53,612 nt of DNA, from assembly GCA_903873715.1 (NCBI GenBank), contig CAIQPS010000060.1, positions 1 through 53,612 of the forward strand, in the 5' to 3' direction. Numbering within the stretch: position 1 is the first letter of the stretch; each line of letters begins with the position of its first letter. The DNA comes from an uncultured Actinomycetes bacterium (lineage in GTDB: Bacteria; Actinomycetota; Thermoleophilia; RBG-16-64-13). The notes beneath the pieces were generated by a model that saw only the letters and a program-made list of their open reading frames with translations, ran no database searches and was not told where the DNA came from. Made by a program: the position numbers and the translations under genes. Positions 13,983 through 31,852 of the stretch are shown piece by piece.

Positions 13983-14034
13983 GGAGCAGGACCAGGCTCC
14001 CGGGTTGGACCTTCGGTGCATCGCGGCCGGTGCC

Positions 14035-14040
14035 TAGGAT
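14035..14040 (+). promoter_or_regulatory. -10 box 8 bases before the first kinase start
   Basis: TAGGAT, preceded by TGCC, ends 8 bases before the ATG at 14049. It may instead serve partly as a weak AGGA ribosome site. Confidence 0.4.
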
Positions 14041-14048
14041 GCGTTACG

Positions 14049-17000
14049 ATGGGGCGGAGCGTCTTTGCTGGGTTACCGACTCGGGAGGACATCCGAAGCT
14101 TGAGCGTGTATTCCCCGTTCCAGCCTTGGGCAGCCTCGTCGCCTTACGGGCTCGCCCTGGGGCTGGCGGCGCTGCTCTGCGTCATCCTCGCCGCGCTCGC
14201 GCTGCGCCATCGCAGCCTTCCCGGAGCACTCGAGTTCGTCGCCCTCATGGCCGGTCTCGCCTTCTGGGCCCTCTTCTATTCGTGGGAACTGACCACGCCT
14301 TCGCTCGAGGGCAAGCTCGTGTGGCTGAGGTTGGAGTTCATCGGCTCCGCCGTGGCTCCCGTCGGATGGTTCCTCTTCGCACGGGCCTACTCGGGCCGAT
14401 CTGGGAAGATGGGCTGGCGGTATCTCTCGCTGGTCTGTCTCGTGCCGCTGATCACGGTGCTCATGGTCGCGACCAACGGGTTGCACGGACTGGTGTGGAG
14501 TCAGGCGTCGGTCGTCAATCCGGGCAAGGTCGCCGGGCTCTTCCTGCAGGCCGGCCCCTGGTACTGGGTCAACGTGGCCAACTCGTATGCGCTCCTGATC
14601 GCAGGGAGCGCCTTCCTCCTGGCCGTCGCCTTCCGCCAGCCGCAGCTCTATAGGAGCCAGATGTGGCTGCTGGTGATCGGCACCGCCACTCCGTGGGCGA
14701 GCAACATCGTGACGGTCATATGGCTGCGCGGGGGATGGTTGGACATCACGCCTTTCGCGTTCATCATCACGGGTGTCCTGCTGTTTCTGGCCATCACTCG
14801 CGCTCATTTGTTCACGAGGCTTCCGGCGCTCCTTCCCCTCGCGGGGCGGAGGATGCTGGAGTCCATGGTGGACGCGGTCCTGGTGCTCGACGCCGGATCG
14901 GTGGTGGTGACGGCCAACCCCGTCGCGGCTGCCATTCTCGACCAGGATGGGAAGGGGCTCGTGGGTATGCCGGTGGCCGCGCTCTTGGCGGGTTGGGTGC
15001 CGGATGCCCGGGCTATCGCCGACGGGCGGGAGCACCGCTTCGAGATACGCCTGAACGGGGCTGAGGGACCACGGGTCTTCGACGTGAGCACCTCGCCGCT
15101 CAAGCTCGGCCGGGCAGGGGCGGGCTCGCTGCTCGTGCTCAGGGACATGACCGAGCGTGACCGGACGGAGGCGGCACTGAGGGAAAGCGAGGAGCGGTTC
15201 CGGGCCGTGTTCGACCAGGGGTCGTTCGGCATCGCGCTGACGGACGACGAGCAGGTGTTCGTACGGGCCAACCCTGTCTTCTGCGCCATGCTCGGCTATG
15301 AGGAGAGCGAACTGCTGGGCCTGAGCGTCCTCGACGTCACCGCCCCGGCCGACGCGGTGAGATCCAGAGAGGTCTTCGGTCGGCTCCGGGCCGGTGGGGC
15401 TCCCGTCGTCCAACTGGAGAAGCAGTACGTCCGCAAGGACGGCAGCACGTTGTGGGCTCAGACCTCTGTGGGATCCCTGCGCTGGGCCGAAGGACGACCG
15501 GCGGGTACCGTCGCCGTGATCCAGGACATCACCGAGCGCAGGCGGCAGGCTGAGGCGCTGGGGATGAGCCAGGCGCAACTGGAGGCGGCCACCGATCTCG
15601 CAGACCTTGCGTACTGGGAACTGGATCTCGATACGGGGATGTTCACGTTCAACGATCGGTTCTACGCGCTCTATGGGACCACCGCCGAGGCGGAAGGCGG
15701 CTACCACATGCCCGCGGATGTGTACGCGCAGAAGTTCGTGTCCCCCGAGGATGCGCACCTCGTGGCCGCCGAGGTGCGGCGCGCGGTCGACTCGGACGAC
15801 CCTGGGATGCGTGCCTACGTGGAACACGACATCATCCGGGCCGACGGAGAGGTGCGCAACATAGTGGTCCGCTACGGCATCACGAAGGACGAGCACGGAC
15901 GCACCATCAGGACCCAGGGAGCGAACCAGGACGTCACCGTCCGCAAGCGGACCGAGCAGGCGCTCTCCCGAGCGGAAGAACATCTCAAGCAGGCCCAGAA
16001 GATGGAGGCTGTGGGGCAGTTGGCCGGGGGGATCGCCCACGACTTCAACAACCTGCTCACCGCGATCATGGGCAACAGCGACCTGGCCCTCGAGGCCATG
16101 GAGCCGGAAGATCCCAACCGGCCGTTCGTGGAAGACATCAGGGAGGTCACCGAGCGGGCCGCCGGGCTGACCAAACAGATCCTCGCCTTCTCGCGCCGGC
16201 AGATGCTCAAGCCCGAGGTGGTGAGGCTCAACGACATCGTCATCAGCATGGAGCCCCTGCTCCACCGGACCATCACCGAGAAGATAGTGGTTGAGACCAT
16301 GCTCGACCCGGATCTGAAGCTCATCGAGGTGGACCCGCACCAGATGGAGCAGGTGATTATGAACCTGGCAGTGAACGCGCGCGACGCGATGCCCGACGGC
16401 GGGCGCCTGACGGTCGCGACGGCCAACGTCTCTCTCGACCGCGTCGTGTCACGCGAAGACGCCGATCTCGAGCCCGGGGACTACGTCCTGCTCTCTGCGC
16501 GAGACACAGGCGAGGGCATGGACCAGGCCACCATCTCCCGCATCTTCGAGCCGTTCTTCACCACCAAGGAACTCGGCAAGGGAACCGGCTTGGGGCTGTC
16601 CACCGTCTTCGGCATCGTGCGGCAGAGCGGCGGCATCATCGACGTGGAGAGTACGGTGGGCGCCGGCAGCACGTTCAAGGTGTACTTGCCTCTATGCAAG
16701 GAGCAGAAGATGACCGGGGCCGAACGGTCCAGCAAGCGCGAAGCTCTCACGGGCACCGAGACGATCCTCGTGGTCGAGGACGAACGGCCCGTCCGCGAAC
16801 TGGTTGTGCGGGTCCTTGCAAGGGCCGGGTATGCGACCTTTGCTGCGGGCTCCGCCGACGAGGTGGACGTCCTCATGGCGGCGGAGCACCCCGCGATCGA
16901 CCTGCTGCTCACAGACGTGGTGCTCCCCGGGGGGCGGGGCGGGCCGGATGTGGCCGCCTCCATCCGGGCGCGGCACGACCGGCTCCCTGTGGTGTTCATG

Positions 17001-17177
17001 CCGGGGTACACGCAGGACGCGTCTGTCTTCGCCGGTGGCAACGAGAACGCCGAGTTCCTCGAGAAGCCGTTCGAGACCGAGGGGCTTCTCGCCGTCGTGC
17101 GGGCACTTCTGGATGCCCGGGCTGCGGAGAAGCTCCGAGTGACGGTCTTGCCGCCGCAGGATCCCGCCCTGAACTAG
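14049..17177 (+). CDS. Hybrid sensor histidine kinase: 7TM N-terminus, PAS domains, transmitter, receiver
   Basis: This is a 1,042-residue membrane kinase. About seven membrane helices fill residues 30-265, resembling the HisKA_7TM sensor unit. Three PAS-like domains follow (about 270-380, 390-510, 520-640), with linkers such as RDMTERDRTEAALRESEERF. The transmitter has the H-box GGIAHDFNNLL with His664, then NARDAMPDGG, DTGEGMD, and FFTTKELGKGTGLGLS of the ATPase domain. The receiver is C-terminal (ILVVEDERPVREL) with Asp956 in LLLTDVVLPGG. No separate response regulator or output domain is nearby, so phosphate must pass to a distant partner. A TTG at 14100 after GGGAGGA is an alternative start. 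Ligand unknown. Confidence 0.88.
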   Translation: MGRSVFAGLPTREDIRSLSVYSPFQPWAASSPYGLALGLAALLCVILAALALRHRSLPGALEFVALMAGLAFWALFYSWELTTPSLEGKLVWLRLEFIGSAVAPVGWFLFARAYSGRSGKMGWRYLSLVCLVPLITVLMVATNGLHGLVWSQASVVNPGKVAGLFLQAGPWYWVNVANSYALLIAGSAFLLAVAFRQPQLYRSQMWLLVIGTATPWASNIVTVIWLRGGWLDITPFAFIITGVLLFLAITRAHLFTRLPALLPLAGRRMLESMVDAVLVLDAGSVVVTANPVAAAILDQDGKGLVGMPVAALLAGWVPDARAIADGREHRFEIRLNGAEGPRVFDVSTSPLKLGRAGAGSLLVLRDMTERDRTEAALRESEERFRAVFDQGSFGIALTDDEQVFVRANPVFCAMLGYEESELLGLSVLDVTAPADAVRSREVFGRLRAGGAPVVQLEKQYVRKDGSTLWAQTSVGSLRWAEGRPAGTVAVIQDITERRRQAEALGMSQAQLEAATDLADLAYWELDLDTGMFTFNDRFYALYGTTAEAEGGYHMPADVYAQKFVSPEDAHLVAAEVRRAVDSDDPGMRAYVEHDIIRADGEVRNIVVRYGITKDEHGRTIRTQGANQDVTVRKRTEQALSRAEEHLKQAQKMEAVGQLAGGIAHDFNNLLTAIMGNSDLALEAMEPEDPNRPFVEDIREVTERAAGLTKQILAFSRRQMLKPEVVRLNDIVISMEPLLHRTITEKIVVETMLDPDLKLIEVDPHQMEQVIMNLAVNARDAMPDGGRLTVATANVSLDRVVSREDADLEPGDYVLLSARDTGEGMDQATISRIFEPFFTTKELGKGTGLGLSTVFGIVRQSGGIIDVESTVGAGSTFKVYLPLCKEQKMTGAERSSKREALTGTETILVVEDERPVRELVVRVLARAGYATFAAGSADEVDVLMAAEHPAIDLLLTDVVLPGGRGGPDVAASIRARHDRLPVVFMPGYTQDASVFAGGNENAEFLEKPFETEGLLAVVRALLDARAAEKLRVTVLPPQDPALN

Positions 17178-19459: not shown

Positions 19460-20950
19460 GTGGCGGCATGGGCTCCGAGACTTTCCAAATCCCGTTTCCA
19501 GGCGGGCCTGCAGTGTCCCAAGAACCTGTGGTTGCAGTGCAGGGCGCCCGGACTCGCCGACCCCGTGGACGAAACCAGACAGGCCATATTCGACCAGGGC
19601 CATTCGGTCGGTGAGTTGGCGCGCACGCTGTTCCCCGGGGGCACCCTGGTGGAGGAGGACTTCACCCAGGCCGACCAAGCCCTGGAGACCACCCGGTGTC
19701 TCATGCGGGACGGTGTGTCGTGCATGTACGAGGGGGCGTTCCGGTACGACGGGGTCTTCGTGCGGCCCGATGCGCTGTTCAAGGAGGACGATGCGGGTTG
19801 GACGTTGGTGGAGGTGAAGTCGTCCCTGTCGGTCAAGCCGGAGCATGTCACGGACCTCGCCATCCAGACCTACGTTCTTCGTGGCGCCGGAATGCCGGTC
19901 ACCAGCGTGCGCCTGCTGCACCTCGACGGAGATTACGTCTACCCAGGCGGCCCCTACGATCTGGGGCGGCTCTTCACACTCGAGGACGTCACCGCGCAGG
20001 TGGAGCCGTTCGTCGAGAAGATCCCCGGGTTGCTCAGGCAGTTCCGGTCCATGCTCGCCGGTCCTGTGCCCGATGTCCGCATCGGCCGGCAATGCAAGAG
20101 CCCGTATCCATGCGCGTTCTACGGCCATTGTCACGAATCCCTGCCGGAGTTCCCGGTCACGGAGATACCGCGCATCGCCGCCGACGTGCTCGATTCCCTG
20201 CTGTGCGACGGCCACTGCTCGATACGCGAGGTGCCTCTCGACTACCCGGGGCTCACCCCGGCGCAGCGCGAAGTGTGCGATGTCGTCCAGACCGGGGAGG
20301 CCCGGTTCGCGCCGCGGTTGCGGGAGGATCTCTCCGGTTTGGGCTCCCGCATACACTTCCTGGACTTCGAGACCTGGGCCCCGGCGCTGCCGGTCTTCCC
20401 GGCCACGCGGCCCTACCAGAGCCTACCGGTGCAATGGTCGCTCCACACCCTGGACGGGGGGCTGCGCCACCAGGACTTCATCCACTCCGACCGCACCGAT
20501 CCGCGGCGGTCCTTCGTCTCCAGCCTTCTTGGCGCACTCGGCGCGGCCGACGGCGAAGCGGATGACGCTCCCATCGTGGTCTACACCGATTACGAGAGCC
20601 GCATCCTCGGGGACATCGCTCGGGATCTTCCCGAGTTCGCCGGTCCCATCGCGGCCGTGCAGGCCCGGCTGTTCGACCTTCACAAGACCATAAGCGATCA
20701 CGTGCAGCATCCCGGCTTCCATGGCAGCTACTCGCTCAAGTACGTGCTGCCGGCACTTGTCAGCGACGTCTCGTACGAGGGCCTTGCGGTGCAGTCCGGA
20801 AGCATCGCCAGTCTGCGTTGGCAACAGGCGGTCTATGGCGGCGCTCCGGCAGCCGTCTCCGAGGGCATCCTCGCCGACCTGCGCGCCTACTGCGCAACCG
20901 ATACACTGGCCATGGTGAAGTTGTACGAGGAGTTGCTGCGCGTCGCCTGA
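19460..20950 (+). CDS. Cas4-like Fe-S nuclease fused to DEDDy exonuclease (DUF2779 / TM0106 family)
   Basis: This is a 496-residue protein with two nuclease halves. The N-terminal half has a RecB-type PD-(D/E)xK site: H48 in DQGHSVGELA, D104 in VRPDAL, and E118-V-K120. One early Cys (C19) and three late Cys (C212, C218, C224 in QCKSPYPCAFYGHC) are placed like the Fe-S ligands of Cas4/AddB. The C-terminal half has Exo I D302-F-E304, Exo II D377 in YTDYES, and Exo III Y477-C-A-T-D481, a complete DEDDy set. The family is known as DUF2779 or TM0106-like. Its function is, to my knowledge, not established. The GTG at 19460 follows a GAGGTG. No cas genes are nearby. DNA end processing or repair is the likely field. 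Confidence 0.85.
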   Translation: MAAWAPRLSKSRFQAGLQCPKNLWLQCRAPGLADPVDETRQAIFDQGHSVGELARTLFPGGTLVEEDFTQADQALETTRCLMRDGVSCMYEGAFRYDGVFVRPDALFKEDDAGWTLVEVKSSLSVKPEHVTDLAIQTYVLRGAGMPVTSVRLLHLDGDYVYPGGPYDLGRLFTLEDVTAQVEPFVEKIPGLLRQFRSMLAGPVPDVRIGRQCKSPYPCAFYGHCHESLPEFPVTEIPRIAADVLDSLLCDGHCSIREVPLDYPGLTPAQREVCDVVQTGEARFAPRLREDLSGLGSRIHFLDFETWAPALPVFPATRPYQSLPVQWSLHTLDGGLRHQDFIHSDRTDPRRSFVSSLLGALGAADGEADDAPIVVYTDYESRILGDIARDLPEFAGPIAAVQARLFDLHKTISDHVQHPGFHGSYSLKYVLPALVSDVSYEGLAVQSGSIASLRWQQAVYGGAPAAVSEGILADLRAYCATDTLAMVKLYEELLRVA

Positions 20951-21012: not shown

Positions 21013-21420
21013 ATGAGGGTGGATCAGGCTCTGCTGGCCGACTACGCAGAAGTCACGCAACGCGGCGGCAAGCTCATCGTGTGCGGCATCTTCGACCGCA
21101 TCACGCTGGCCGACCCGGAGGCCGTCCATCCTCACATGGCCCTTGCCCTAAGGCTGGTCCACGAACCCGGGGAAGGTGCCGGCCACCACCTGTCCGTGCG
21201 GCTGGTCGACCCTGATGGCAAGGATGTCGTCCCGCCTATGCACGGCGATGTGGAAGTCAAGGGCGAGATGGAGGCCGATGCTTCTGTCAACCTCATCCTG
21301 GACCTGAATCTCGTGAAGTTCGGGGCTGCCGGGCCGCATTCGTTCGACATCTACCTGGACGGCGAGTTGCAGCGGCAGGTCTCGCTCACCGTGGACCGGA
21401 TGGTCCGTATAGACACGTAG
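21013..21420 (+). CDS. DUF6941-like small protein
   Basis: This is a 135-residue soluble protein with no membrane or export signal. It reads as a compact beta-sandwich: KLIVCGIFDRITLADPE, ALALRLVHEP, HHLSVRLVDPDGKDV, and a final HSFDIYLDGELQ. I recall this layout from DUF6941, whose members are annotated only by name. GAGGAGGG lies a few bases before the ATG. It follows the nuclease gene by 62 bases on the same strand and may be co-transcribed, but a functional tie is not shown. Confidence in the gene is high; in the family name, moderate. Confidence 0.72.
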   Translation: MRVDQALLADYAEVTQRGGKLIVCGIFDRITLADPEAVHPHMALALRLVHEPGEGAGHHLSVRLVDPDGKDVVPPMHGDVEVKGEMEADASVNLILDLNLVKFGAAGPHSFDIYLDGELQRQVSLTVDRMVRIDT

Positions 21421-21486: not shown

Positions 21487-21840
21487 CTAGTCGGTCACCG
21501 GTGTCTTGTGCCGGTCGAGCAGGTGGCGGACGGCCAGGTACGGATGGCTGGAGATCATCCTGGGGCCGGAATACCTCATGACGGCTCGTATCTGTTCGCG
21601 CATGGTCGGGCGGTAGCAATGGACCGTGCAGCGCGCGCAGGTGGGCTTGCTGTCGGCGAACCGGCACGCCTCGATGCGGTCCATCGCGTACTCGAGCAGG
21701 GCGGCGCAGTCGTCACAGGGCACTGCGCCGGGGCCATGCATCGCGCGGCAGTGCATGTGGACCATCACCTCGACGGTCCGGGCTTCCCGACGGAGACGGC
21801 GGGACGAGAAGCGGCGCGTGGTGGCTGGAGTCGCGGTCAC
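21487..21840 (-). CDS. ygbA: YgbA-like protein (nitrous-oxide-stimulated promoter family)
   Basis: This is a 117-residue Cys/His-rich protein matching the YgbA family (E. coli YgbA is also about 117 residues). The Cys are paired as CDDC and CARCTVHC, and the strongly conserved tail CYRPTMREQIRAVMRYSG is present. In enterobacteria ygbA belongs to the NsrR regulon and supports growth under nitric oxide stress. The exact reaction is unsettled, and the Cys may bind metal. It is the third gene after the CwlO-like hydrolase and the nitroreductase, 15 bases behind the latter. The GTG start lacks a ribosome site of its own, so translation may depend on the upstream gene. Confidence 0.82.
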   Translation of the reverse strand: MTATPATTRRFSSRRLRREARTVEVMVHMHCRAMHGPGAVPCDDCAALLEYAMDRIEACRFADSKPTCARCTVHCYRPTMREQIRAVMRYSGPRMISSHPYLAVRHLLDRHKTPVTD

Positions 21841-29230: not shown

Positions 29231-29296
29231 CACCTGCCGGGCGGCGCGCCCACGGAGCGCCGCCCCGGATCCCCGGATATCCTCCCCATGAGCACC

Positions 29297-29324
29297 GGCG
29301 CCCCTGACGGGGCGCCGTTCTTTC
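29297..29324 (+). terminator. Rho-independent terminator of the carboxyltransferase operon
   Basis: GGCGCCCC (29297-29304), loop TGAC, GGGGCGCC (29309-29316), then GTTCTTTC. The 8-bp stem is perfect. It lies upstream of the second kinase and argues against translation starting before it. Confidence 0.85.
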
Positions 29325-29332
29325 GTGTCCGG

Positions 29333-29361
29333 TTGTATGGGCGGGCGTCGGGTGATAGGGT
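29333..29361 (+). promoter_or_regulatory. Promoter candidate of the second histidine kinase
   Basis: TTGTAT (29333-29338), a 17-base spacer, TAGGGT (29356-29361). The predicted leader of about 58 bases contains GAGGAGA before the ATG at 29426. Confidence 0.5.
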
Positions 29362-29425
29362 CGAACGGAGCCCAAGCCGGCCCCCGATGTGCCTGCACCG
29401 GGGTCTCGTCGGTGAGGAGACCGAC

Positions 29426-31852
29426 ATGAGCGACGTGTCCCAGCAGCTCGAACCGCGAATCCCGGACGACATCGGACCGCCGGTAGACTTGTGGCCGGGC
29501 AGGCGGCCTACACGGTGGGCGTCGCTCGTTGTGGCGACGGTGCCTCTTGCGGTGGCGTGCATAGGTATCCTGGTCGCGACGAGGCCGGCAGGGGCCTTCA
29601 ACCCCGGCTACAGTTTCGCCTTGTTCAACACCCTGCTGTTGGGCGTCCCTTCCTTCGCAGTGGCGATCCTTGCGCTGCGCAGCCACCTGGAGAGGGCGTC
29701 GTGCATCGTCTACCTGATGGGACTCGGAACGCTCTCACTGGGGCTCGGCGCGATTTTCGCCGGATTCCGTCTTGGGGGGTCGGTGCCGGGAGCCATCCCC
29801 GCCTTGTACAACAGTTTGGCGTTGCTTTCCGGCCTTCTGCATCTGTCGTCGGTCGCGATGTGCGCGTCGGCGTCGGGCGCAGGGCGACGTGGCGGCCGGT
29901 TGGCGGTGGCTCTTGGCGGGTACGCCGGCGTCGTGCTGGCGGCGGTCGTCCTGTTGGTGCTCGTGCGCAACGACCTGTGGCCGCGCTATTTCCTGCAAGG
30001 GGTCGGAGCGACGCCGCTGGGCAAGGGTGTCGCTTGGTCGGCGGCCGGTGTGTTCGGAGTCTCTGCGATCCTTCTCGCTCTCAGGCCTGCGGTGGGATGG
30101 ACGTACTTTCGCTTGTTCTACAGCGTCGGTCTGGGTCTCATATGCGTGGGATTGGCGGGGGTGGCGTTCCAGCATTCGCTCGGCGACGCTGTCAACTGGG
30201 CGAGCCGTGCAGCGCAGTACCTGGGCGGGGTGTCTCTCGTCGTCGCCGTGGTGCCCGCGGCGAGAGGTTGGATGCAGTGGCTGGTCTCGGTCAGGCACAG
30301 GCTCGATGAGTCCGAGCACCGCTATAAGAAGCTTGTCGATCTGAACCCCGAAGGCATCGTCGTCATCGCGAAAGGTCGTATCGTTGCCGCGAACCCCGCG
30401 GCGGCCGCCCTGTTCGGGGCGAGTTCCGAGAGGGTCTTGAAATCGACCCCCCTCGACCGACTGCTGGACGGAGACGCCCTGTCGGCTATGGACCCTGAGC
30501 CTGAGCAGGCGAGAAAGTCTCACGCCACTGCGTTCCAGACCTTCGAGATCCGCGGCCTCGACGGGGTCTTGCGTTCAGCGGAGATGACCAGCGCCCGGGT
30601 CAACTACGGTGGCAGGCCGTCGCTGTTGCTGGTCTTTCGAGACGTCACGGGGCGCCAGCGCTCCGAGAGAGAACTCAGACAGGCGGAGGAGCAGCTGCGG
30701 CAGAGTCAGAAGATGGAGGCCGTCGGGCAACTGGCCGGCGGTATCGCCCACGACTTCAACAACCTCCTCGGGGTGATTCTGGGGTATGCGGAAGTGTTGA
30801 GCGAAAGCGCCGACCTGCAGACATCGGAGAGCAGGAAGGACCTCGAAGAGATCAGACGTGCGGGCGAGAGGGCTGCGACACTCACCAAGCAGATCCTGGC
30901 GTTCTCTCGTCGGCAGCCGATGCGACCCGAGAAGGTGCGTTTGAACGACTTGCTCGAGGAATTGGCGCCCATGCTGCGTCGCATCCTCGGCGAAGATCTT
31001 CAGCTGGTCACCAGGTTGGACCCCGGCCTGGGGTATGTTCGGGCCGACCGGCACCAGTTGGAGCAGGTGGTGACGAACCTCGTTCTCAACGCCCGAGACG
31101 CCATGCCAGGCGGCGGGGTCCTCACGTTGGGGTCTGGCAGCGTCTCGTGGGCGATGAACGAGCTTGGCGATGGGCCCGGATCGGACGAGCACTTCGCGGT
31201 GCTCTCGGTGTCCGACACCGGCGTGGGCATGGACCGGGACACGGCATCGCGGGCGTTCGAACCGTTCTTCACCACGAAGGAGCCCGGCAAGGGCACCGGC
31301 CTGGGTCTCTCCGTGGTCTACGGCATCGTGCAGCAGAGCGGGGGCCACGTCGAGCTGTCCAGCGAGCCGGGCGAAGGGACGCGGGTAGACGTGTACCTTC
31401 CGCTGGTGGAAGCGGAGGATGCTCGAGGCGCGGGGCCGCTCGAGACCTCGCAAGTGACGGGCCAGGGACAGACGATCATCCTGGCCGAAGATGAAGCGCA
31501 ATTGAGGGTGCTCATGGTGCGCTATCTGTCCGGCCTGGGCTATCGGGTTCTGGCTGCGGCCGACGCGGACGAAGCGCAGGCCATCGCACGCTCCTGCGAA
31601 GTGCCGCCGGACCTGCTGGTCACGGACGTGATCTTGCCGGGTTCGCTGCGGGGCGACGGGTTGGCTCGTAAGATCCTGGAACAGTTCCCGGGTATCCCGG
31701 TGCTCTTCATATCCGGCTATCCGAGCGACTTCATCGGGCGCTCCGGGGCGCTCGACGAGGGAACGACGCTCCTGCAGAAGCCTTTCCGCCCAGAAGTCCT
31801 GGGTATGGCGGTCCGTCAAGCTCTCGCCGACCGGCCTGTCGCGGGGAGCTGA
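29426..31852 (+). CDS. Hybrid sensor histidine kinase: multi-TM, PAS, transmitter, receiver
   Basis: This is an 808-residue protein. A membrane unit of about eight helices lies at residues 25-285. One PAS domain follows (about 300-405, LDESEHRYKKLVDLNPEGIV), then a short coiled link and the transmitter with H-box GGIAHDFNNLL (His442), NARDAMPGGG, SDTGVGMD and FFTTKEPGKGTGLGLS. The receiver is C-terminal, with Asp734 in TDVILPGS. The start at 29426 is set by GAGGAGA 6 bases upstream. The same transmitter type as the kinase at 14049-17177 but with a different membrane part and fewer PAS domains. There is no cognate regulator beside it. Signal unknown. Confidence 0.87.
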   Translation: MSDVSQQLEPRIPDDIGPPVDLWPGRRPTRWASLVVATVPLAVACIGILVATRPAGAFNPGYSFALFNTLLLGVPSFAVAILALRSHLERASCIVYLMGLGTLSLGLGAIFAGFRLGGSVPGAIPALYNSLALLSGLLHLSSVAMCASASGAGRRGGRLAVALGGYAGVVLAAVVLLVLVRNDLWPRYFLQGVGATPLGKGVAWSAAGVFGVSAILLALRPAVGWTYFRLFYSVGLGLICVGLAGVAFQHSLGDAVNWASRAAQYLGGVSLVVAVVPAARGWMQWLVSVRHRLDESEHRYKKLVDLNPEGIVVIAKGRIVAANPAAAALFGASSERVLKSTPLDRLLDGDALSAMDPEPEQARKSHATAFQTFEIRGLDGVLRSAEMTSARVNYGGRPSLLLVFRDVTGRQRSERELRQAEEQLRQSQKMEAVGQLAGGIAHDFNNLLGVILGYAEVLSESADLQTSESRKDLEEIRRAGERAATLTKQILAFSRRQPMRPEKVRLNDLLEELAPMLRRILGEDLQLVTRLDPGLGYVRADRHQLEQVVTNLVLNARDAMPGGGVLTLGSGSVSWAMNELGDGPGSDEHFAVLSVSDTGVGMDRDTASRAFEPFFTTKEPGKGTGLGLSVVYGIVQQSGGHVELSSEPGEGTRVDVYLPLVEAEDARGAGPLETSQVTGQGQTIILAEDEAQLRVLMVRYLSGLGYRVLAAADADEAQAIARSCEVPPDLLVTDVILPGSLRGDGLARKILEQFPGIPVLFISGYPSDFIGRSGALDEGTTLLQKPFRPEVLGMAVRQALADRPVAGS

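What the first reader, a model, noticed from the sequence alone, without database searches (positions are those of the whole stretch)
19460..20950. One protein carries a Cas4-like Fe-S nuclease and a complete DEDDy exonuclease
Seen: RecB-type catalytic residues (H48, D104, E118-x-K120), four Cys placed as in Cas4/AddB (C19, C212, C218, C224), and all DEDDy motifs (D302-x-E304, D377, Y477-x3-D481) in 496 residues. Known: the family is DUF2779/TM0106-like with no settled function. Inference: one polypeptide could trim both DNA strands or polarities at an end, a self-contained end-processing machine outside CRISPR and AddAB. The adjacent DUF6941-like gene may be a partner.
Basis: partly seen in the sequence, partly recalled or inferred. 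Interest (0 to 1): 0.65.

Follow-up and report, generated by a model that had tools for sequence, protein, structure and literature searches.

The report
Two-nuclease DUF2779 protein, Cas4-like plus DEDDy
A bacterial gene encodes one protein made of two different DNA-cutting enzymes joined end to end; the pairing was already described in print in 2014 and is widespread, but nobody seems to have tested what it does, and relatives sit next to motor-ATPase and regulator genes on plasmids rich in anti-virus genes.

Summary
ORF 19460-20950 is a real gene whose protein has a Cas4/RecB-type PD-(D/E)XK nuclease with four iron-sulphur cysteines (residues 1-235) and a PolB-like DEDDy exonuclease (295-496). 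An AlphaFold model (mean pLDDT 85.6) matches Cas4 (Z 13.8-13.9) and family-B polymerase exonuclease domains (Z 15.5). Of 49 full-length homologues, 44 keep both sets of catalytic residues, and 41 also keep all four cysteines.

Two residues need correcting. H48 is not conserved (18/50). D377 is not the third DEDD acid (4/50); that is E379 (about 96%), as in the related TM0106/COG2251 family, so the set is D-E-E-Y-D. The suggested DUF6941 partner is not supported: of the full-copy genomes in the same taxonomic family only one other has it, on another contig.

The architecture is not new. A 2014 RNase H-fold survey states that DUF2779 and COG2251 proteins contain DUF83 (the Cas4 domain) and presumably 3'-5' exonuclease activity. 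I found no biochemical test.

Beyond the finding, distant relatives recur in an AAA+ ATPase - DUF2779 - WYL regulator operon spanning Betaproteobacteria and Planctomycetota, in plasmid defence neighbourhoods, and with a YfbR-like 5'-deoxynucleotidase. The window copy has none of these neighbours. Best reading: a stand-alone DNA end-trimming or DNA-degrading enzyme; function untested.

The parts
19460..20950 (+). DUF2779 protein, 496 aa: Fe-S RecB/Cas4-like nuclease fused to a DEDDy exonuclease
   Evidence: PF11074 E 2.6e-28; weak Cas4 profile hit over residues 17-226; AlphaFold model
19460..20164 (+). Cas4/RecB-type PD-(D/E)XK nuclease half (residues 1-235): D104, E118-x-K120, Q136
   Evidence: Conserved 94-100%; VIA Z 13.8 to Cas4 7mi5 with the half folded alone
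19514..19516 (+). C19, first presumed Fe-S ligand
   Evidence: C in 48/50 homologues
20093..20131 (+). C212, C218, C224, remaining presumed Fe-S ligands
   Evidence: C in 47/50, 49/50 and 49/50; lost together with C19 in L023 and L065
20342..20947 (+). PolB-like DEDDy 3'-5' exonuclease half (residues 295-496): D302, E304, E379, Y477, D481
   Evidence: Conserved 94-96%; VIA Z 15.5, rmsd 2.5 over 168 residues to a PolB exonuclease domain
20594..20596 (+).
   Evidence: Conserved about 96%; aligned with Glu of TM0106 proteins
21013..21420 (+). DUF6941 gene downstream (62-bp gap): neighbour, not a supported partner
   Evidence: PF22091 E 1e-28; not syntenic and rarely co-occurring

Best explanation
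A stand-alone bifunctional DNA nuclease. The N-terminal half is an Fe-S-stabilised Cas4/Exo5-like PD-(D/E)XK enzyme that clips or trims single-stranded DNA or flaps. The C-terminal half is a PolB-proofreading-like DEDDy enzyme (catalytic set D302, E304, E379, D481 with Y477) that removes nucleotides 3' to 5'. Together they resect or degrade DNA ends from either polarity without a helicase of their own. In the window's lineage it is a single chromosomal gene, most likely used for clearing or trimming damaged or foreign DNA; in other bacteria the same protein has been taken into AAA+/WYL operons and plasmid defence neighbourhoods, where a partner ATPase would feed it substrate. Shown here: both folds are predicted and both active sites conserved. 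Inferred: DNA rather than RNA as substrate, polarity, cooperation of the two sites, and physiological role.
For: Two confident folds. 44/49 homologues keep both catalytic sets, 41/49 also all four Cys. Full-length profile homology with TM0106/COG2251, many of whose members in this phylum are long proteins (about 1000-1450 aa), and which is reported to carry tandem AAA domains. A 11/18 presence of full-length copies in the window's taxonomic family and none in the sampled rest of its class, with a supported clade, argues for retention as a chromosomal gene. No conserved neighbour among those relatives argues for stand-alone action. Elsewhere: AAA+ - DUF2779 - WYL operon across phyla, defence-gene neighbours on plasmids, and a YfbR-like deoxynucleotidase directly upstream in 8 genomes of one family, which fits an enzyme that releases deoxynucleoside monophosphates.
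Against: No biochemical data. Independent loss of either active site (L058/L059, L054/L044) shows that the pair is not always needed. The closest sequenced relative (L029, 58% identical) has Gly at D302, a one-base change that may be real or an assembly error. The exonuclease motif II has Glu where DEDD enzymes normally have Asp, so activity cannot be taken for granted. RNA is not excluded as substrate for the DEDDy half.
Confidence: 0.55

Rival explanations
1. Anti-phage or anti-plasmid effector: the protein degrades invading DNA as the nuclease arm of a defence system, with an AAA+ ATPase as sensor or motor and a WYL protein as regulator where present.
For: Plasmid-borne, patchy distribution. 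The AAA+ - DUF2779 - WYL order is kept in Diaphorobacter, Rhodoferax and a genome of the phylum of L004 (Planctomycetota), rearranged in Sphingobium. Its AAA+ scores best in PADLOC to IetA and NCBIfam 'anti-phage ATPase' (119.6 bits, far below that model's cut-off of 510). Qat, PDC-S06, PDC-S26 and MzaB-like genes are neighbours. WYL genes are enriched in the two adjacent slots on 14 annotated plasmid loci (4/28 against 4/154, Fisher p 0.02).
Against: The window copy and its relatives in the same taxonomic family have no AAA+ or WYL neighbour found. The operon clade does not include the window clade. The Fisher sample is small, loci are not phylogenetically independent, and it was computed after seeing the pattern. 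No such system is in the PADLOC models scanned.
Confidence: 0.3
2. Only one half is catalytically important; the other serves as a nucleic-acid-binding or structural module.
For: Natural inactivation of either half in a few relatives, Gly at D302 in the nearest relative, unusual Glu in motif II.
Against: 44/49 keep both catalytic sets, and the window protein has every conserved residue of both.
Confidence: 0.12
3. RNA or tRNA processing enzyme: the DEDDy half trims RNA 3' ends.
For: DEDD folds include many RNases; the AlphaFold match does not decide the substrate.
Against: Structural nearest neighbours are DNA polymerase proofreading domains and DNA-specific Cas4/Exo5/AdnA/RecE/MGME1 nucleases; 5'-deoxynucleotidase neighbours.
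Confidence: 0.08

Closest known systems
DUF2779 family (PF11074; RNase H-like clade F.17)
   Same: Member by Pfam score, far above cut-off (99.2 against 23.3 bits); same two-domain layout as all homologues aligned.
   Different: Nothing structural found. The window clade lacks the AAA+/WYL or HD neighbours that other members have.
TM0106 / COG2251 family (TIGR03491, PF13482; clade F.13)
   Same: Full-length profile homology over 444 columns (97.6%, E 4e-12) including a Fe-S RecB half, the Y-x-x-Y-E motif II and the C-terminal Y/N-x3-D motif.
   Different: Below the TIGR03491 cut-off. Many TM0106 members in this phylum are about 1000-1450 aa, reported to carry tandem AAA domains, which this protein lacks.
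Cas4 (4ic1, 4r5q, 7mi5, 8d3l) and solo-Cas4
   Same: PD-(D/E)XK fold, four-Cys Fe-S arrangement, catalytic D, E-x-K and Q.
   Different: Fused to an exonuclease; no Cas1 in the genome. The His typical of Cas4 (own knowledge) is not conserved. Not mentioned in the text of the 2017 Cas4 phylogenomics paper (PMC5704561).
PolB-family proofreading exonuclease domains
   Same: Fold and position of D-x-E and Y-x3-D (Z 15.5).
   Different: Motif II acid is Glu, not Asp; no polymerase domain.
Giant-virus two-domain proteins (e.g. CroV E3T4R0, Yasminevirus, Faunusvirus)
   Same: Predicted structures match along most of the length (query TM-score 0.63-0.72).
   Different: Only 11-12% identity, longer proteins, catalytic residues not checked here.

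Membership tests
DUF2779 (PF11074) | Score above Pfam gathering cut-off over the whole model | tested here: met
   99.2 bits against 23.3, profile positions 1-126 of 126
DUF2779 (PF11074) | DUF83/Cas4-like domain N-terminal to the RNase H-like domain (PMC3985635) | tested here: met
   Fold and residues; 14 of 33 aligned members hit PF01930 on their own, the window protein only PADLOC Cas4 at E 1.4e-4
TM0106 (TIGR03491) | Score above NCBIfam cut-off | tested here: not met
   30.3 against 97.45 bits
Cas4 | Four-Cys Fe-S plus PD-(D/E)XK catalytic residues D, E, K, Q | tested here: met
Cas4 | Association with cas1/cas2 (CAS-Cas4) | tested here: not met
   No Cas1 match in the own genome, 97% complete; no cas gene recognised near
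Cas4 | Fe-S cluster actually bound | not testable with these tools
   Cys region is low-confidence in the model
DEDDy exonuclease | D-x-E, motif II acid, Y-x3-D in an RNase H fold | tested here: met
   D302-F-E304, E379 (Glu instead of the usual Asp), Y477-x3-D481
DEDDy exonuclease | 3'-5' exonuclease activity | not testable with these tools
   Needs purified protein
AAA+ - DUF2779 - WYL candidate defence operon | AAA+ upstream and WYL downstream of the nuclease gene | tested here: not met
   Window neighbours are GNAT, an unassigned gene and DUF6941; no AAA2 or WYL profile match in the window

The most novel reading that the evidence does not exclude
DUF2779 proteins are two-polarity end-degrading enzymes that work alone in some lineages and as the nuclease of an undescribed AAA+ - DUF2779 - WYL anti-phage or anti-plasmid system in others, with a Glu-variant DEDDy site shared with COG2251 and giant-virus proteins.
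Probability: 0.3. Interest if true: 0.6.

Novelty: new member of a known kind. Interest (0 to 1): 0.35.

Why it matters
A widespread family still labelled 'unknown function' carries two co-conserved nuclease sites in one chain, and natural relatives exist in which each site or the Fe-S centre has been lost separately. That makes a clean mutant series available for testing what each half does. The AAA+/WYL operon and the 5'-deoxynucleotidase neighbour give concrete hypotheses (defence; DNA degradation to nucleosides) for a family that the Cas4 survey text and the PADLOC models searched here do not cover.

Tried and rejected
DUF6941 partner: no DUF6941 was found adjacent to DUF2779 in same-family relatives; 5/18 genomes have DUF6941, and of those with full DUF2779 only the window genome and G239 do, on different contigs in G239. 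CRISPR association: no Cas1. Sequence search of the PDB gave nothing useful, neither with the protein nor with the profile (only chance hits at E about 0.9). No phage record in the phage collection matched the window protein; the one weak phage signal, with a viral-contig homologue as query, covers 15% of it in Helicobacter prophages. Three further viral-contig scans gave no new locus. Literature: DUF2779, TM0106/COG2251, Cas4 plus DEDDy, WYL/AAA/Cas4-like and YfbR searches found no functional study; the library holds open-licence papers only. A Mycoplasma bovis transposon mutant in a DUF2779 gene is listed among mutants selected in cell culture, without mechanism. H48 and D377 rejected as catalytic by conservation. 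Absence of other folds from the VIA lists is not used as evidence.

Full report
Observation. The ORF at 19460-20950 (+) is 496 codons with a GTG start, an in-frame stop upstream and GC3 of 0.84, like its neighbours. Pfam assigns DUF2779 to residues 299-425 (E 2.6e-28); PADLOC gives a weak Cas4 match over 17-226 (E 1.4e-4); TIGR03491 (TM0106) is reached only below its cut-off. The genome (3.3 Mb, 169 contigs, about 97% complete) has one DUF2779 gene.

Conservation. Fifty homologues, taken from the window's phylum, the phylum of a Clostridia genome and that of a Planctomycetota genome, were aligned. Cys19, 212, 218 and 224 are kept in 94-98%, D104 in 100%, E118 and K120 in 96%, Q136 in 94%, D302 in 94%, E304 in 96%, Y477 and D481 in 94%. 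H48 is kept in 18/50 and D377 in 4/50. E379 is kept in 96% and D406 in 98%. The pattern Y-x-x-[FY]-E lies where DEDD enzymes carry motif II: in the model E379 starts the helix that follows the strand at 372-374. A profile comparison with TM0106 proteins of the same phylum aligns over 444 columns (97.6%, E 4e-12) and places E379 against the Glu of 'YHYAFYE'. I therefore read the exonuclease set as D302, E304, E379, Y477, D481. This assignment rests on conservation and the predicted secondary structure; atomic coordinates were not examined.

Natural variants. Excluding one truncated row, 44/49 keep both catalytic sets and 41/49 also all four Cys. L058 and L059 have lost the DEDDy residues but keep RecB and Cys; L054 and L044 have lost RecB residues but keep DEDDy. 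L023 has lost the Cys set with both active sites intact, and viral-contig L065 appears the same in a second alignment. L045's apparent Cys loss looks like an alignment shift. L029, the nearest relative (58%), has Gly at position 302 by one base. L044 and L054 are long-branch rows, so they may be decaying genes. The modules are thus separable, while most members keep both.

Structure. AlphaFold with a seven-sequence alignment gave mean pLDDT 85.6, pTM 0.81; the Cys region 207-227 is below 50. Foldseek's best PDB hits are Cas4, human EXO5, AdnA and RecE for one part and herpesvirus and archaeal PolB for the other. VIA-align gave Z 15.5 (rmsd 2.5, 168 residues) to a PolB exonuclease domain for 295-492 and Z 13.9 to Cas4 for 3-212. 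The N-terminal half folded alone gave Z 13.8 to Cas4, then MGME1, RecE, AdnA, EXO5, Dna2 and AddB. BFVD shows giant-virus proteins that match most of the length.

Neighbourhood of the window copy. Upstream are a GNAT acetyltransferase and an unassigned gene, downstream DUF6941 after 62 bp. In relatives of the same taxonomic family the DUF2779 gene has different neighbours. DUF6941 occurs in 5/18 genomes of that family and does not track DUF2779. DUF2779 is full-length in 11/18 of those genomes, with an internally deleted remnant in a twelfth, G298, and it was found in no other genome of the class in a sample of 296 genomes of the phylum. Nine of the family's copies, the window's included, form a supported clade. 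The genome has no Cas1 and one pair of adjacent PDDEXK_1 helicase-nuclease-sized proteins.

Neighbourhood elsewhere. Thirty plasmid records carry a homologue. Of 14 inspected, Diaphorobacter and Rhodoferax show double-AAA+ ATPase - DUF2779 - WYL in that order, and so does genome G665 from the Planctomycetota sample; Sphingobium has the same genes rearranged. A second layout, SpoVK-like AAA+, NERD, metallophosphoesterase and WYL, is shared by a Selenomonas plasmid and two loci of one genome, G342. Other plasmid neighbours are Qat genes, PDC-S06, PDC-S26 and a MzaB-like ATPase. On the annotated plasmid loci, WYL genes take 4 of 28 adjacent slots against 4 of 154 others (one-sided Fisher p 0.02); this test was made after the pattern was seen, on related loci, and is only suggestive. 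In one family of the window's phylum, a YfbR-like HD 5'-deoxynucleotidase lies within 54 bp upstream in 8 genomes and 674 bp upstream in a ninth. The profile-assisted WYL and AAA+ counts come from small seed profiles iterated on the same loci, so distant matches there were not taken as evidence.

Known or new. PMC3985635 (2014) places DUF2779 (F.17) and COG2251 (F.13) in the exonuclease clade, presumes 3'-5' exonuclease activity, and says both contain DUF83, which resembles PD-(D/E)XK nucleases. The finding is thus a member of a described, uncharacterised family. What I did not find described is the Glu in motif II, the separate natural losses, and the AAA+/WYL and HD operons; the literature searched is open-licence only.

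Mechanism. Most likely the two halves act on DNA ends: Cas4-like enzymes reported so far are DNA nucleases, with 5'-3' ssDNA exonuclease activity for Pcal_0546 and both directions claimed for one Sulfolobus protein (background quoted in PMC5704561), and PolB-like DEDDy domains are 3'-5' (own knowledge). That the halves cooperate, and the cellular role, are inference.

Noticed in passing
L069:5733-10467, L070:5848-10462, L106:7564-12203: Double-AAA+ ATPase, DUF2779 nuclease and WYL regulator in the same order and strand in Betaproteobacterial plasmids and a genome from the Planctomycetota sample: a candidate operon.
   Followed up: partly
L098:9971-11089, L119:9713-10852, L120:8433-9551 and short loci L006-L014, L024: YfbR-like HD 5'-deoxynucleotidase directly upstream of DUF2779 in 8 genomes of one family (f11), 674 bp upstream in a ninth (L101).
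   Followed up: partly
L076:2462-14211, L102, L103: Second recurrent layout around DUF2779: SpoVK-like AAA+, NERD helicase-like protein, metallophosphoesterase and WYL protein.
   Followed up: partly
BFVD entries E3T4R0, A0A5K0U8I2, A0A3G4ZWN9, A0A3G5AGZ9: Giant-virus proteins of unknown function match the two-nuclease model along most of its length.
   Followed up: no
L039 / L041 (G298:C1:5902-6362): Remnant of the gene with residues about 59-398 missing and the ends in different frames: a decayed copy in a close relative.
   Followed up: no
L029, residue equivalent to D302: The closest relative has Gly in place of the first DEDDy Asp (GGC against GAC), real loss or assembly error.
   Followed up: partly
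L073:11466-12662: Sphingobium plasmid carries a TM0106-type protein matching only profile positions 3-354 (exonuclease half apparently missing) beside a second WYL gene, 2 kb from its DUF2779 gene.
   Followed up: partly
window 14016-17177 and 29288-31852: Two hybrid histidine kinases with receiver domains, the first with a 7TM sensor and PAS domains.
   Followed up: no
window 21487-21840 (-): ORF 60% identical to a YgbA_NO (nitrous oxide-stimulated promoter family) protein of relative L082.
   Followed up: no
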